A stretch of 25,986 nt of DNA from a virus. Positions within the stretch are counted from its first letter, which is position 1. Each line of letters opens with the position of its first letter. The DNA lies in the IMG/VR virus record IMGVR_UViG_3300022745_000133, positions 1-25,986 of that record, one strand, 5' to 3'. A program made the position numbers and the translations under genes. The notes below the pieces were generated by a model that searched no databases, was not told the DNA's origin, and saw only the letters and a list, made by a program, of their open reading frames with translations. This document shows, one piece after another, positions 7,805-11,797 of the stretch.

Positions 7805-7835
7805 GTGGATTACTCCGTTGGTTGTTGAGACCTGC

Positions 7836-7940: not shown

Positions 7941-8080
7941 TCGACGCCCAACAACCAAGCTTGACATCCTCCTCACTCTAAAGGGTGAGGATTCCCTCTG
8001 CAGGAAGGCCATGTCCGACCTCGGCTTGCGCCTTATTCAAGACAGGTTCACCGGCTTCCACCTCTGCTGCCTTGGAGATT
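7941..8080 (-). ncRNA. Candidate TnpB guide RNA (omegaRNA/reRNA), boundaries approximate
   Basis: TnpB nucleases use an RNA from the 3' end of their own gene through the right transposon end, with a guide copied from the flanking DNA. Here that scaffold would run from inside the last codons of tnpB through the right-end hairpin to 7961. The guide would be about 16-20 nt of phage sequence at 7941-7960. The interval is placed by analogy; no RNA boundary can be seen directly. Confidence 0.4.
7961..7994 (-). repeat. Right end of the tnpB element
   Basis: On the minus strand: GAAT (7991-7994), a stem-loop of six pairs (CCTCAC/GTGAGG) extended by an imperfect and a C-G pair with a TTTA loop, six more bases, then TCAA (7961-7964). 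The tnpB stop codon (7978-7980) lies inside the hairpin. The GAAT guide and TCAA cleavage tetranucleotides match those described for IS608 right ends. Confidence 0.7.
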
Positions 8081-9129
8081 GCTAACTGAGCGAGACCCTT
8101 TGCGCAGATATTGGTTGCGGCGTTGACATCCCGATCGTGGTGCGCTCCACATGAGCACGTCCATGAACGGACATACAACTCTTTGCGGCCTTTCGGCCCC
8201 TCAATACTCCCACAAGCCGAGCACTTTTGAGTGCTCCAAGCCTCGTTCACTTCCTCAAAGACGACACCAGCCGCTTGGGCTTTGTATTCCAACATCGTCT
8301 TGAACATAGACCAGCCCGCATCAAGTGTGGACTTGGCCATGTTGGTCTTGACCAACTTCGCGCTGGCCACGTTGCCGACAAAGATGGCAGCATTCTCTTT
8401 CACCAACTTGGTGGACAGTTTGTGCATCGCATCTTTTCGGCGGTTCGCTATCTTGGCGTGTATTGCCTTGGTGCGCATCTTCTTTCCAGATCGCTGCGCT
8501 GTTGCCAGCGCCTGTTCCATTTCACGGAACCAGCGGCTTTTGAGAACCTGACCGTCCGAGCAGGAAGCAGCCTCCTTGAGGCCCAGGTCGATACCCAAGA
8601 TCGACGTACCGTTGCCATTGGTGGATTCCACCTGCACGACCACGTTCAAGTACCAGCGGCCCCGGCTGTCCTCCGTGATTGACCCTGCACGCAATTCAAA
8701 TTGTCCCAGACTGTAGCTGTCCCACAAGGAGAGCAGCTTGCCAGCATAGCGAATCTGACCGTTCTTGTAGACCACAGTGCCCTTCTTGAATGGCAGCCAG
8801 CCCAAGCTGTACTTGCTGGACTTTGGGTTGCTGACGCGCCAGCGCAGTTTGTGCTTCTTGAACTGCTTACGGCGGGAGGCGTACTCCTCGCAGACCTGCT
8901 GCAAGGTCTGGCTCGGAATACTCAGCGCATCTTCACCTTTGGTAGAACCTGCGACCAACTTTTGCAAGTCGTACCCAGACAACCACCGGGGCTTGCTGTT
9001 GTACGGGCTGCTGGCCTTGGCTGATACCTCATTGCAGAAGTTGAACACCTGATTAACTTCACGCGCCAATCCGCGAAGCCAAGCTGCGTGCTTGTCTTTA
9101 ATTCGGAGCTTGAGCGTTTTAGTCTGCAT
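7978..9129 (-). CDS. tnpB: TnpB RNA-guided nuclease with altered RuvC-II site
   Basis: 383 residues from ATG 9129 (MQTKTLKLRIKDKHAAW), chosen because the earlier in-frame ATG at 9141 falls inside the -10 box. It has the N-terminal OrfB/TnpB region (RGLAREVNQVFNFCNE), RuvC-I GIDLGLK with D181, a four-residue zinc-finger set (C303, C306, C325, C327) and RuvC-III DRDVNAA with D334. At the place where TnpBs carry the RuvC-II glutamate, this protein reads IFVGNVASAKL: the expected Glu is G252. A nearby FEEVNEAWSTQ (E292, E293, E296) precedes the zinc finger and could supply a relocated acid. The second zinc pair is C-x-C rather than the usual C-x2-C. TnpBs cut DNA matching a transposon-derived guide and help keep the element in place. 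It has no tnpA partner and looks more GC-rich in codon use than adjacent tail genes. The family is certain; nuclease activity is open. Confidence 0.95.
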   Translation of the reverse strand: MQTKTLKLRIKDKHAAWLRGLAREVNQVFNFCNEVSAKASSPYNSKPRWLSGYDLQKLVAGSTKGEDALSIPSQTLQQVCEEYASRRKQFKKHKLRWRVSNPKSSKYSLGWLPFKKGTVVYKNGQIRYAGKLLSLWDSYSLGQFELRAGSITEDSRGRWYLNVVVQVESTNGNGTSILGIDLGLKEAASCSDGQVLKSRWFREMEQALATAQRSGKKMRTKAIHAKIANRRKDAMHKLSTKLVKENAAIFVGNVASAKLVKTNMAKSTLDAGWSMFKTMLEYKAQAAGVVFEEVNEAWSTQKCSACGSIEGPKGRKELYVRSWTCSCGAHHDRDVNAATNICAKGLAQLAISKAAEVEAGEPVLNKAQAEVGHGLPAEGILTL

Positions 9130-9136
9130 GGGTATT

Positions 9137-9142
9137 ATCATA
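9137..9142 (-). promoter_or_regulatory. tnpB promoter, extended -10, leaderless geometry
   Basis: TATGAT preceded by TGC (extended -10) ends 7 nt before the ATG at 9129, so transcription should begin at or within one or two bases of the start codon. There is no SD. The -35 region falls in the left-end palindrome and is not consensus. Confidence 0.5.
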
Positions 9143-9152
9143 GCACATCTTC

Positions 9153-9187
9153 AACTTCACATAATTGGTCTGCAATTATGTGAAGTT
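9153..9187. repeat. Left-end palindrome of the tnpB element
   Basis: A perfect inverted repeat: 14 bp (AACTTCACATAATT and complement) plus a further G-C pair closing a 5-nt loop. It is just upstream of the tnpB promoter, where IS200/IS605 elements hold the subterminal hairpin bound by TnpA. A matching AAAG/TTAC guide-cleavage pair is not visible beside it, so the exact left boundary is unresolved. Confidence 0.6.
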
Positions 9188-9225: not shown

Positions 9226-10440
9226 TTACACGACTGCGGCACCCAGACGATCAATGAAGATCAGGCGACGCAAGGTGGGGTCAGTGTTTGCTGCATCAAT
9301 CAAGGCGGTCAGCGACACATCGACCATCATGTCAGCATCTTTGCCGCCAGCATTCGACTTCCAGGTGCTGATATTTGCCACGGGCACTGTAATCACGTAG
9401 GTATTGCCTGCATAATCAGAGCTGTGGAAGATCAACGAAGTGTTGGTATTTGCCTTGAACTTGTTGAACAGGTCTTTGTTGGCAAAGTAAATCTGGGTGG
9501 AGGCAGAGCAGTTGATGGTACCAGAACCGATAGCTACAGCACCAAGAGAGCCAATAGCACCCTGGTTACGTAATGCATTATCAAAGTCCAGAGACACACT
9601 CTTAACAAATGTACCAGTCACTGGAGAGCCATCAAGCCATACAGAGTTAGTAGCACCAGACACGCCGGAGTGAATATCATACGCAGGAGCAGCAACTGGA
9701 GTGCCTGGCAGGTAAGTTGCATCACTCTGGTCAGCGTTCTTGCCCATGAAGTCAAACGACAAGGTGGACAGTGCCCCAGACTGGATGCTAATGTTCATCT
9801 TGCTAGGTGTTTGACCACGGAACACTGTATGCACGTCGATGTCAAAGTTCTCACGCTCGATAGAGAACGAGGTCTGAGTATTACCATGGGTCAGGCGGCT
9901 GGACTGAATCTGGATAGACTCAGCGGTGCTGGCTGCGGCAGGTGTGTTGGTATCCAGGGTGATGACAGTGGTTGTTGGTGCAGTCACAGACGACACACGC
10001 AGAATCTTGCCGTTGTTTGCACCAGCGCTGGAGACTCGGAACCATTGACCCTTCTTCAGCAAGGTGAAGGCATTGCTGCCCGTAGTGGCTGCAGAGGCCG
10101 TGATGGTGGTCGCGGTGATGGTAGAAGTTGCGGTAGCAGCGCCAACGCCAGCCGTACCAAACACGCTCCAGGTGGACTGCATCGCAGACTCCATGAAATC
10201 ATCTGGACCGTTGTAATGCATTTCCATCTGCAAGCCGCCGCTGGTGCTGGCATCGACAGGCACCATGCTGGACACGCCACGCGAAGCGTTGATCTCTTTG
10301 CTTGACTCTTTGCTGATCGCAAAGTCAAGACTTTCTCCAGTTACTCGAACTTCTTTGGAGTTTCCGGTTACGGGGGTGACACCAAAGGTTGCTTCCTTGA
10401 TGTAACGAACTACGATAGAACTGGATGATGCAAGTGCCAT
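9226..10440 (-). CDS. Major tail tube protein (downstream paralog)
   Basis: 404 residues starting MALASSSSIVVRYIKEATFGV; GGAG lies 9 nt before the ATG. Shares with its upstream neighbour the N-terminal block VRVTGESLDFAISKESSKE, a GGLQMEMHYNGPD motif, SSRLTHGNTQTSFSIERE, SVDFDNALRNQ-type and SWKSNAGGKDADMMVDV stretches and the C-terminal FIDRLG. This is the look of the beta-sandwich siphophage tube family (Phage_tube_2-like), whose hexamers stack to form the tail tube. It lies between the tail terminator side and the G/GT chaperones, the expected place for lambda V. Codons favour C/G-ending, optimal choices (ACC, GGC, CTG, AAC) far more than the paralog, suggesting it is the abundant subunit. 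It ends FIDRLGAAVV, shorter than the paralog. Confidence 0.85.
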   Translation of the reverse strand: MALASSSSIVVRYIKEATFGVTPVTGNSKEVRVTGESLDFAISKESSKEINASRGVSSMVPVDASTSGGLQMEMHYNGPDDFMESAMQSTWSVFGTAGVGAATATSTITATTITASAATTGSNAFTLLKKGQWFRVSSAGANNGKILRVSSVTAPTTTVITLDTNTPAAASTAESIQIQSSRLTHGNTQTSFSIERENFDIDVHTVFRGQTPSKMNISIQSGALSTLSFDFMGKNADQSDATYLPGTPVAAPAYDIHSGVSGATNSVWLDGSPVTGTFVKSVSLDFDNALRNQGAIGSLGAVAIGSGTINCSASTQIYFANKDLFNKFKANTNTSLIFHSSDYAGNTYVITVPVANISTWKSNAGGKDADMMVDVSLTALIDAANTDPTLRRLIFIDRLGAAVV

Positions 10441-10546: not shown

Positions 10547-11797
10547 TTAGGCAGCGGGCCTGAAGAAGTAGTTGTACCAAGTTGTTGACTGGTAGTTAGG
10601 TCCAAGCCTGTCAATAAACAGCAACTTCTGCTGTGACACATCAGTAGTAGTTGAGTCAAGCAGTGCTGTACATTGCAGGTCTACCAGCATATCGTTGTCT
10701 TTTCCTCCTGCATTCGACTTCCACGAGGCTATATTGAGTGCTGGGAATGTAAAGATGTAACCATTACCTTGATCATCAAGTGACCTAAACGCTACTGAGC
10801 TACGTCCATTAGACCTAAATGAGTTAAACAGTGCTTTATCTGCAAAGTAGACCTGCATGTTTACAGTACAGCTAATCGTACCACTGCCGATTGCAACAGA
10901 TTCAAGATAGCCTACAGCATTTTGGGCACGCAGAGCATTGTCAAAATCTACACTTATAGACTTAACATAAGTATTTGTTGTTGGTGCTTCATTGAACCAG
11001 ATAGCATTCTCTTCACCTAGCACACCTGAGTGAATGTCAAAGGTAGCTGCGTCTGCCACCGGGTCTGGTAAACTTGTTACTTCAGTCTGCTCTGCAGACT
11101 TACCAACAAAGTCAAAGCCAAGTGTAGTAATCTGTGACGACTCGACCTTCAACGAAAGCTTACTAGGTGTCTGTCCAGTGAATAGTGTGAAAACACCAAT
11201 GTCCGGGCTGATTCGCTCAATAGAGAATGACGACTGCAGCGTGCCATGAGTCAAGCGGCTTGATTCAATTTGCACAGACTCTGCAAGATTTGGTGCTGCA
11301 GGTGTGTTAGGGTCGAGTGTCAGAACACTCGCCGTAGGCAGGCTAACCTTGCTGACCCGCAAGATTTTTCCGTTATTCGGCCCTGCGCTGACAAGCCTAA
11401 ACCATTGTCCAGGTTTCAGTACAGAGAAGTTGCTGGAGCCACTTGTCGGCACTGCCGCTGTGATAGTTGTGGCCGTAACATTAACCAACGTAGCCTCACC
11501 CAAGCCTCCTGAGCCGAAACCTACCCAGTTGTCCTGCAGGGTTGAAGCCAGAAGCATATCAGGGCCTCGGTAGTGCATCTCCATCTGGATGCCACCTGAA
11601 GTACCCGCAGACAGAGACACTGCGCTTGAAGACCCGCGTGTCGTGCTGAGTTCTTTGCTAGACTCTTTGTTTATTGCGTAGTCCAGACTCTCACCAGTAA
11701 CCCGTATTTTGACAGGATTACCAAGTTGTGAGACTGCACCGAAAGTCTGCTCTCTATGAAGTACAAGTTCCGTGCTTGAAGATGAAGCGAATGTCAT
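10547..11797 (-). CDS. Tail tube protein paralog (upstream copy)
   Basis: 416 residues starting MTFASSSSTELVLHREQTFGA, SD AGGA 7 nt before ATG. It aligns with the downstream tube protein along its whole length, including VRVTGESLDYAINKESSKE, GGIQMEMHYRGPD, NNGKILRVSKV, SSRLTHGTLQSSFSIER, TGQTPSKLSLKVES, SWKSNAGGKDNDML and FIDRLG, then adds an aromatic tail, NYQSTTWYNYFFRPAA. It is clearly a tandem duplicate, now well diverged. Codons are less optimised and more A/T-ending than in the other copy. It may form a minor ring at one end of the tube (near the terminator or baseplate), mix into the tube, or be a spare copy. The fold assignment is firm; the distinct role is unknown. Confidence 0.8.
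   Translation of the reverse strand: MTFASSSSTELVLHREQTFGAVSQLGNPVKIRVTGESLDYAINKESSKELSTTRGSSSAVSLSAGTSGGIQMEMHYRGPDMLLASTLQDNWVGFGSGGLGEATLVNVTATTITAAVPTSGSSNFSVLKPGQWFRLVSAGPNNGKILRVSKVSLPTASVLTLDPNTPAAPNLAESVQIESSRLTHGTLQSSFSIERISPDIGVFTLFTGQTPSKLSLKVESSQITTLGFDFVGKSAEQTEVTSLPDPVADAATFDIHSGVLGEENAIWFNEAPTTNTYVKSISVDFDNALRAQNAVGYLESVAIGSGTISCTVNMQVYFADKALFNSFRSNGRSSVAFRSLDDQGNGYIFTFPALNIASWKSNAGGKDNDMLVDLQCTALLDSTTTDVSQQKLLFIDRLGPNYQSTTWYNYFFRPAA

What the first reader, a model, noticed from the sequence alone, without database searches (positions are those of the whole stretch)
8200..8400. TnpB lacks the standard RuvC-II glutamate but has an acidic cluster nearby
RuvC-I (D181 in GIDLGLK) and RuvC-III (D334 in DRDVNAA) are intact, yet the RuvC-II site reads IFVGNVASAKL, with G252 where TnpBs have Glu. 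Forty residues on, FEEVNEAW carries E292, E293 and E296. Published censuses of TnpB describe both rearranged catalytic sites and nuclease-dead, guide-directed regulators. Either would be notable inside a phage tail operon: a nuclease with a moved glutamate, or an RNA-guided repressor aimed at a phage or host gene.
Basis: partly seen in the sequence, partly recalled or inferred. Interest (0 to 1): 0.72.

Follow-up and report, generated by a model that had tools for sequence, protein, structure and literature searches.

The report
Phage TnpB with a relocated glutamate
The DNA-cutting protein TnpB in this phage has its usual catalytic glutamate replaced by glycine, but a different, fully conserved glutamate (E296) takes over at a second position already known from a published branch of TnpBs and from eukaryotic Fanzors, so this is most likely an ordinary working RNA-guided nuclease in a small mobile element inserted in a phage tail operon.

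Summary
Window 7978-9141 (-) encodes a TnpB with D181 and D334 intact and G252 aligned to the catalytic Glu of ISDra2 TnpB (E278). The RuvC-II glutamate is not lost: in 94 relatives position 252 is Gly in 92, and the same 92 have Glu at 296; the other two (Streptomyces) have Glu at 252 and Arg at 296. E292 and E293 are variable (49 and 52 of 94). E296 lies six residues before the first zinc-ribbon Cys, which is the published 'Ealt' position of Fanzors and a D-Phi-G clade of TnpBs; in SpuFz1 that Glu coordinates the catalytic metal. The gene is under purifying selection and ends in a covarying IS605-type right-end hairpin. The hairpin ends exactly at TCAA (window 7961); every copy then has a different flank, its own guide. 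Related phage operons (L028, L036) lack the element at the same place, and relatives sit elsewhere, some next to a Y1 tnpA. So it is a tnpB-only IS605-type insertion encoding a probably active Ealt nuclease whose guide addresses its own insertion site. The nuclease-dead regulator reading is not supported. New member of a known kind; no cleavage was tested.

The parts
7978..9141 (-). tnpB ORF (387 aa; probable start at the second Met, 9129)
   Evidence: PF07282 82.9 bits, PF01385 43 bits; NCBIfam guided_TnpB NF040570 218.6 bits against cut-off 100; PHROG 506 transposase
8587..8589 (-). RuvC-I Asp D181 (GIDLGLK, a D-Phi-G motif)
   Evidence: Asp in 94 of 94 relatives; DLG in all
8374..8376 (-). 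G252, at the canonical RuvC-II Glu position (Ecan lost)
   Evidence: aligned with ISDra2 RuvC-II Glu; Gly in 92 of 94 relatives
8242..8244 (-). E296, relocated RuvC-II Glu (Ealt), six residues before the first zinc-ribbon Cys
   Evidence: Glu in 92 of 94; the two exceptions have Ecan; directly follows a strand of the model; matches the published Ealt position
8128..8130 (-). RuvC-III Asp D334 (DRDVNAA)
   Evidence: Asp in 91 of 91 relatives with a residue there
7961..7995 (-). right end (RE): hairpin GGAATCCTCACCCTTTAGAGTGAGGAGGATGTCAA, 3' part of the guide-RNA scaffold
   Evidence: covariation: 7 of 8 pairs with changes on both sides, 0/500 shuffles reach the observed values; information content 2 bits at TCAA, about 0 from the next base, over 47 right ends
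7941..7960 (-). inferred native guide (16-20 nt): GCTTGGTTGTTGGGCGTCGA, phage DNA flanking the RE
   Evidence: position next to RE; best match in relative L028 (13 of 16) is the orthologous empty site
9153..9187 (-). perfect 15-bp inverted repeat upstream of tnpB, possible left-end hairpin
   Evidence: DNA fold z -5.9; left boundary not resolved to the base
9226..10440 (-). tail tube gene upstream of the insertion
   Evidence: Phage_tube_2, 105.7 bits
7397..7837 (-). tail assembly chaperone gene downstream of the insertion
   Evidence: PHROG 8233 / 313

Best explanation
The locus is a tnpB-only (IS1341-like) relative of IS200/IS605 elements, inserted between the tail tube and tail assembly chaperone genes of an uncultured tailed phage. 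Its TnpB is an Ealt enzyme: the RuvC site is D181-E296-D334, with E296 reaching the site from the end of the last RuvC strand next to the zinc ribbon instead of from the strand carrying G252. Shown: sequence, reciprocal conservation, fold, RE hairpin covariation, guide boundary, and relatives of the operon without the element. Inferred: TnpB binds the RNA made from the 3' end of its own gene plus RE; the flank after TCAA acts as guide; the complex cuts copies of the site that lack the element, so that repair or selective loss keeps and spreads the element among phage genomes. Mobilisation needs a Y1 TnpA from elsewhere.
For: Reciprocal Ecan/Ealt pattern: 92 of 94 relatives Gly252+Glu296, 2 of 94 Glu252+Arg296; E292/E293 not conserved. 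E296 fits the published Ealt definition, six residues before the zinc finger, with a D-Phi-G RuvC1 (PMC10711439). In SpuFz1 E541 (with D383 and D606) coordinates Mg in an active enzyme and the Glu sits between the fifth strand and the TNB domain. In the model, a strand covering reader residues 290-295 ends just before E296, and the fold matches ISDra2 TnpB 8h1j at Z 23.4 over 323 residues. dN/dS 0.09-0.21. RE covariation and sharp guide boundary. Same operon without the element in L028 and L036. Relatives at other sites, two of them with divergent Y1 tnpA; exact empty site of the Salmonella phage LPSTLL relative.
Against: No cleavage was measured, and no activity of a D-Phi-G Ealt TnpB was found in the papers read. 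Coordinates of the model were not available, so no distance from E296 to D181/D334 was computed; model confidence is moderate (pLDDT 78.5, pTM 0.50). The left boundary and hence the TAM are unresolved. The element has no tnpA of its own. dS is near saturation. L028 matches the guide at only 13 of 16 positions and no exact empty site of this phage was found.
Confidence: 0.88

Rival explanations
1. Nuclease-dead, guide-directed regulator (TldR-like) that represses a phage or host gene.
For: The canonical RuvC-II Glu is missing and the gene sits in a phage; TldRs are known in prophages (PMC13418256).
Against: D181, E296 and D334 are all retained across the family; zinc ribbon kept; every copy carries a different guide equal to its flank; no linked cargo gene; the closest relative sits at an unrelated site.
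Confidence: 0.04
2. The catalytic glutamate is E292 or E293, not E296.
For: Both are acidic, close by, and lie in the strand before E296.
Against: E292 is Glu in 49 and E293 in 52 of 94 relatives, whereas E296 is Glu in 92; neither fits the published Ealt spacing.
Confidence: 0.03
3. A decaying passenger: an inactive, immobile remnant of an IS605 element in the phage.
For: No tnpA in the window; left end unresolved; some distant viral relatives lack a recognisable RE.
Against: Full-length open frame, dN/dS 0.09 against L002, intact RE hairpin with covariation in the family.
Confidence: 0.08

Closest known systems
Ealt D-Phi-G TnpBs (Yoon et al., NAR 2023, PMC10711439)
   Same: RuvC1 D-L-G, no Glu at the canonical position, Glu six residues before the zinc ribbon.
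   Different: 112 residues between DLG and the Glu (published search pattern, as read, 120-160) and a CxC second knuckle, so the strict pattern misses it; it also misses all 94 relatives.
ISDra2 TnpB (PDB 8h1j, 8exa, 8bf8; PMC8612924)
   Same: Fold, zinc ribbon, RuvC-I and -III Asp, guide taken from the RE flank.
   Different: ISDra2 has Ecan (E278) and no Glu at the Ealt position; it has a tnpA partner.
Fanzor (SpuFz1; mimivirus Fanzor2, PDB 9b0l)
   Same: Glutamate moved to the junction of the last RuvC strand and the TNB domain.
   Different: Fanzors have DPG in RuvC1; this protein has DLG and is in a bacterial virus.
Salmonella phage LPSTLL transposase YP_010657405.1 and Acinetobacter phage HFM1 WNA15560.1
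   Same: 51-53% identical Ealt TnpBs in tailed phages with the same type of RE.
   Different: Inserted at other genes: lysis region and a nucleotide-metabolism region.
TldR nuclease-dead repressors
   Same: TnpB descendants found in phages.
   Different: RuvC inactivated and a fixed target; here the site is complete and the guide is the local flank.

Membership tests
TnpB (RNA-guided endonuclease of IS200/IS605-type elements) | Family profile match above curated cut-off | tested here: met
   NF040570 218.6 against 100 bits; PF07282 82.9 against 26.3, PF01385 43 against 30.5
TnpB (RNA-guided endonuclease of IS200/IS605-type elements) | TnpB fold | tested here: met
   8h1j Z 23.4, rmsd 3.8, 323 aligned; moderate-confidence model
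TnpB (RNA-guided endonuclease of IS200/IS605-type elements) | Conserved RE hairpin followed by a copy-specific guide | tested here: met
TnpB (RNA-guided endonuclease of IS200/IS605-type elements) | RNA-guided DNA cleavage | not testable with these tools
   needs biochemistry
Ealt D-Phi-G TnpB clade | D-Phi-G in RuvC1, no Ecan, Glu six residues before the first zinc Cys | tested here: met
   DLG; G252; E296-AWSTQK-C
Ealt D-Phi-G TnpB clade | Published search pattern in full (spacing 120-160, CxxC second knuckle) | tested here: not met
   spacing 112 and CxC; 0 of 94 relatives pass; the pattern is a search device, not the clade's definition
Ealt D-Phi-G TnpB clade | Position in the published tree | not tested
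   the published alignment was not available
Fanzor / pro-Fanzor | DPG in RuvC1 | tested here: not met
   DLG in this protein; no DPG in 94 relatives
TldR | Inactivated RuvC triad | tested here: not met
   D181, E296, D334 retained
TldR | Fixed guide against a host or phage gene, with linked cargo | tested here: not met
   the sequence after the RE differs in every copy compared
Autonomous IS605 element | Y1 tnpA in the same element | tested here: not met
   none between the tail tube gene and RE; present in relatives L003 and L008

The most novel reading that the evidence does not exclude
An Ealt TnpB acts as an RNA-guided homing nuclease between co-infecting phages: its guide records the tail-operon site and the enzyme cuts phages lacking the element, with the relocated glutamate giving cutting without the collateral single-strand activity of Ecan TnpBs, as was found for SpuFz1.
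Probability: 0.25. Interest if true: 0.5.

Novelty: new member of a known kind. Interest (0 to 1): 0.25.

Why it matters
It settles, as far as sequence can, that the missing glutamate is not a dead site, and gives a clean reciprocal Ecan/Ealt data set in phage and bacterial elements. These elements have short RuvC spacing, so the published search pattern overlooks them; Ealt TnpBs may be commoner than that pattern suggests. The family offers small, native phage-borne Ealt enzymes with defined right ends and guides for testing whether a moved glutamate changes collateral cutting.

Tried and rejected
Nuclease-dead regulator: rejected on the conserved E296 and flank-derived guides. E292/E293 as catalytic: rejected on conservation. 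CxC second knuckle as damage: rejected, since 9 of 94 proteins have it, among them L004, L016 and the Ecan Streptomyces proteins. Exact empty site of this phage: two pattern scans of IMG/VR found only unrelated contigs. Left boundary: GTTAAC|TTCAC (9184) fits L028 by eye, but a 15-bp hairpin spans it, L002 (82%) lacks that hairpin, and relatives have TGAC/TGAT flanks; left open. Rfam found nothing. Single-sequence fold of the last 165 nt was no better than shuffles (z -0.47). The papers Altae-Tran 2023 and Wiegand 2024 are not held in the library, so what is said of them rests on memory or on citing papers. A first tabulation of the alignment used a numbering shifted by four and was discarded.

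Full report
Observation. The ORF at window 7978-9141 (-) is a TnpB (PF07282, PF01385, NCBIfam guided_TnpB well above cut-off). Alignment to ISDra2 TnpB places G252 on the RuvC-II glutamate, the residue whose mutation (E278A) inactivates ISDra2 (PMC8612924).

The glutamate has moved. Relatives were collected from IMG/VR, GTDB genomes and named phages. In 94 aligned proteins, position 181 is Asp in 94; position 252 is Gly in 92 and Glu in 2; position 296 is Glu in 92 and Arg in 2; position 334 is Asp in all 91 with a residue there. The two proteins with Glu at 252 are exactly the two with Arg at 296 (Streptomyces L023, L024). E292 and E293 are Glu in only 49 and 52. The two exceptions come from one lineage, so the reciprocity counts as one event in this set, but ISDra2 and LaTranC in the PDB alignments show the same state: Glu at 252, none at 296.

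This state is published. Yoon et al. (PMC10711439) define Ecan about 50 residues before the zinc finger and Ealt six residues before it. They find Ealt in Fanzors (with DPG) and in a TnpB clade with D-Phi-G. Here the sequence is D-L-G and E296-AWSTQK-C, an exact fit. In SpuFz1, E541 coordinates Mg together with D383 and D606 in an active nuclease (PMC10432273), and the catalytic Glu of Fanzors is described as lying between the fifth strand and the TNB domain (PMC11423790). In the AlphaFold2 model made here (19 sequences, pLDDT 78.5, pTM 0.50) a strand spans reader residues 290-295 and E296 follows it directly; the fold matches ISDra2 TnpB 8h1j at Z 23.4 over 323 residues, and mimivirus Fanzor2 9b0l at Z 19.5.

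One difference from the published search pattern: the spacing from DLG to Ealt is 112 residues here and 112-114 in most relatives, outside the 120-160 of that pattern as I read it. The second zinc knuckle is CxC in this protein and in 8 others. None of the 94 passes the strict pattern.

The element. The 3' end of tnpB runs into a right-end hairpin that ends in GATGTCAA. Over 47 right ends the information content is 2 bits through TCAA and about zero from the next base on; a few of the 47 are false motif hits inside the gene, which does not affect the boundary. The hairpin covaries in 26 hand-picked right ends: 92% of cells paired, 7 of 8 pairs with changes on both sides, 0 of 500 shuffles as high. 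So each copy takes its own flank as guide, as in ISDra2 (PMC8612924). For this copy the guide is GCTTGGTTGTTGGGCG..., starting at window 7960.

The insertion. Two related phage contigs have the tail tube and tail chaperone genes adjacent without tnpB (L028 at 66-69% protein identity, L036 at 54%). The best match of the 16-nt guide in the L028 locus, 13 of 16, is in that intergenic region. The closest TnpB (L002, 82%) shares no detectable DNA with the window outside the gene and RE. L003 and L008 carry a divergent Y1-type tnpA next to tnpB, again in phage structural operons (the tnpA was recognised by its sequence, not by a profile search). A Salmonella phage LPSTLL relative has an exact empty site in phage VSt472, CATTGTGAT|AGAATTAAT, with RE ending TCAA. 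One bacterial genome (Malikia, G002) holds 41 matches to the query, about 15 of them at 57% identity or more. These facts make it a mobile element, not a resident phage regulator.

Mechanism. Best supported: an Ealt TnpB with triad D181-E296-D334, guided by its own RE-derived RNA to the element-free version of its insertion site. Cutting there would retain the element after excision and bias inheritance, as shown for IS200/605 TnpB in plasmids (PMC11870625). Cutting, the TAM and spread between phages are inferred, not shown. The gene is under purifying selection (dN/dS 0.09-0.21, dS near saturation).

Verdict. The repressor half is not supported. It is a new member of a known kind.

Noticed in passing
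window 9226-10440 and 10547-11797 (-): Two tandem paralogous tail tube genes (both Phage_tube_2, about 56% identical in a three-way alignment); the related locus L028 has only one between the tail terminator and the chaperone.
   Followed up: partly
window 7818-7827 and 7949-7958: TTGGTTGTTG occurs as an inverted pair flanking the intergenic terminator; the pair is also in L028 and, changed on both sides, in L036 (GGTTGGTTGGTGG / CCACTAACCAAC). The element sits directly beside one arm.
   Followed up: partly
L055, L062, L064, L070, L073, L079, L080, L082, L086: Distant viral Ealt TnpBs without a recognisable right end after the gene: possible domesticated copies worth a separate look.
   Followed up: no
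G002 (Malikia genome, e.g. L010-L013, L017, L018, L020): 41 tblastn matches to this TnpB in one 3.2 Mb genome: a strong expansion of TnpB elements, several with an in-frame stop.
   Followed up: no
L031 (Salmonella phage LPSTLL) 2921-2929 and 4111-4119: AGAATTAAT is present at both ends of the insertion and once in the empty site, looking like a 9-bp target duplication although IS605-type elements make none; may be chance in AT-rich DNA.
   Followed up: no
L004 4548-4620: A second, inverted right-end-like sequence (78% over 73 bases) near the tnpB element: possible solitary guide-RNA relic.
   Followed up: no
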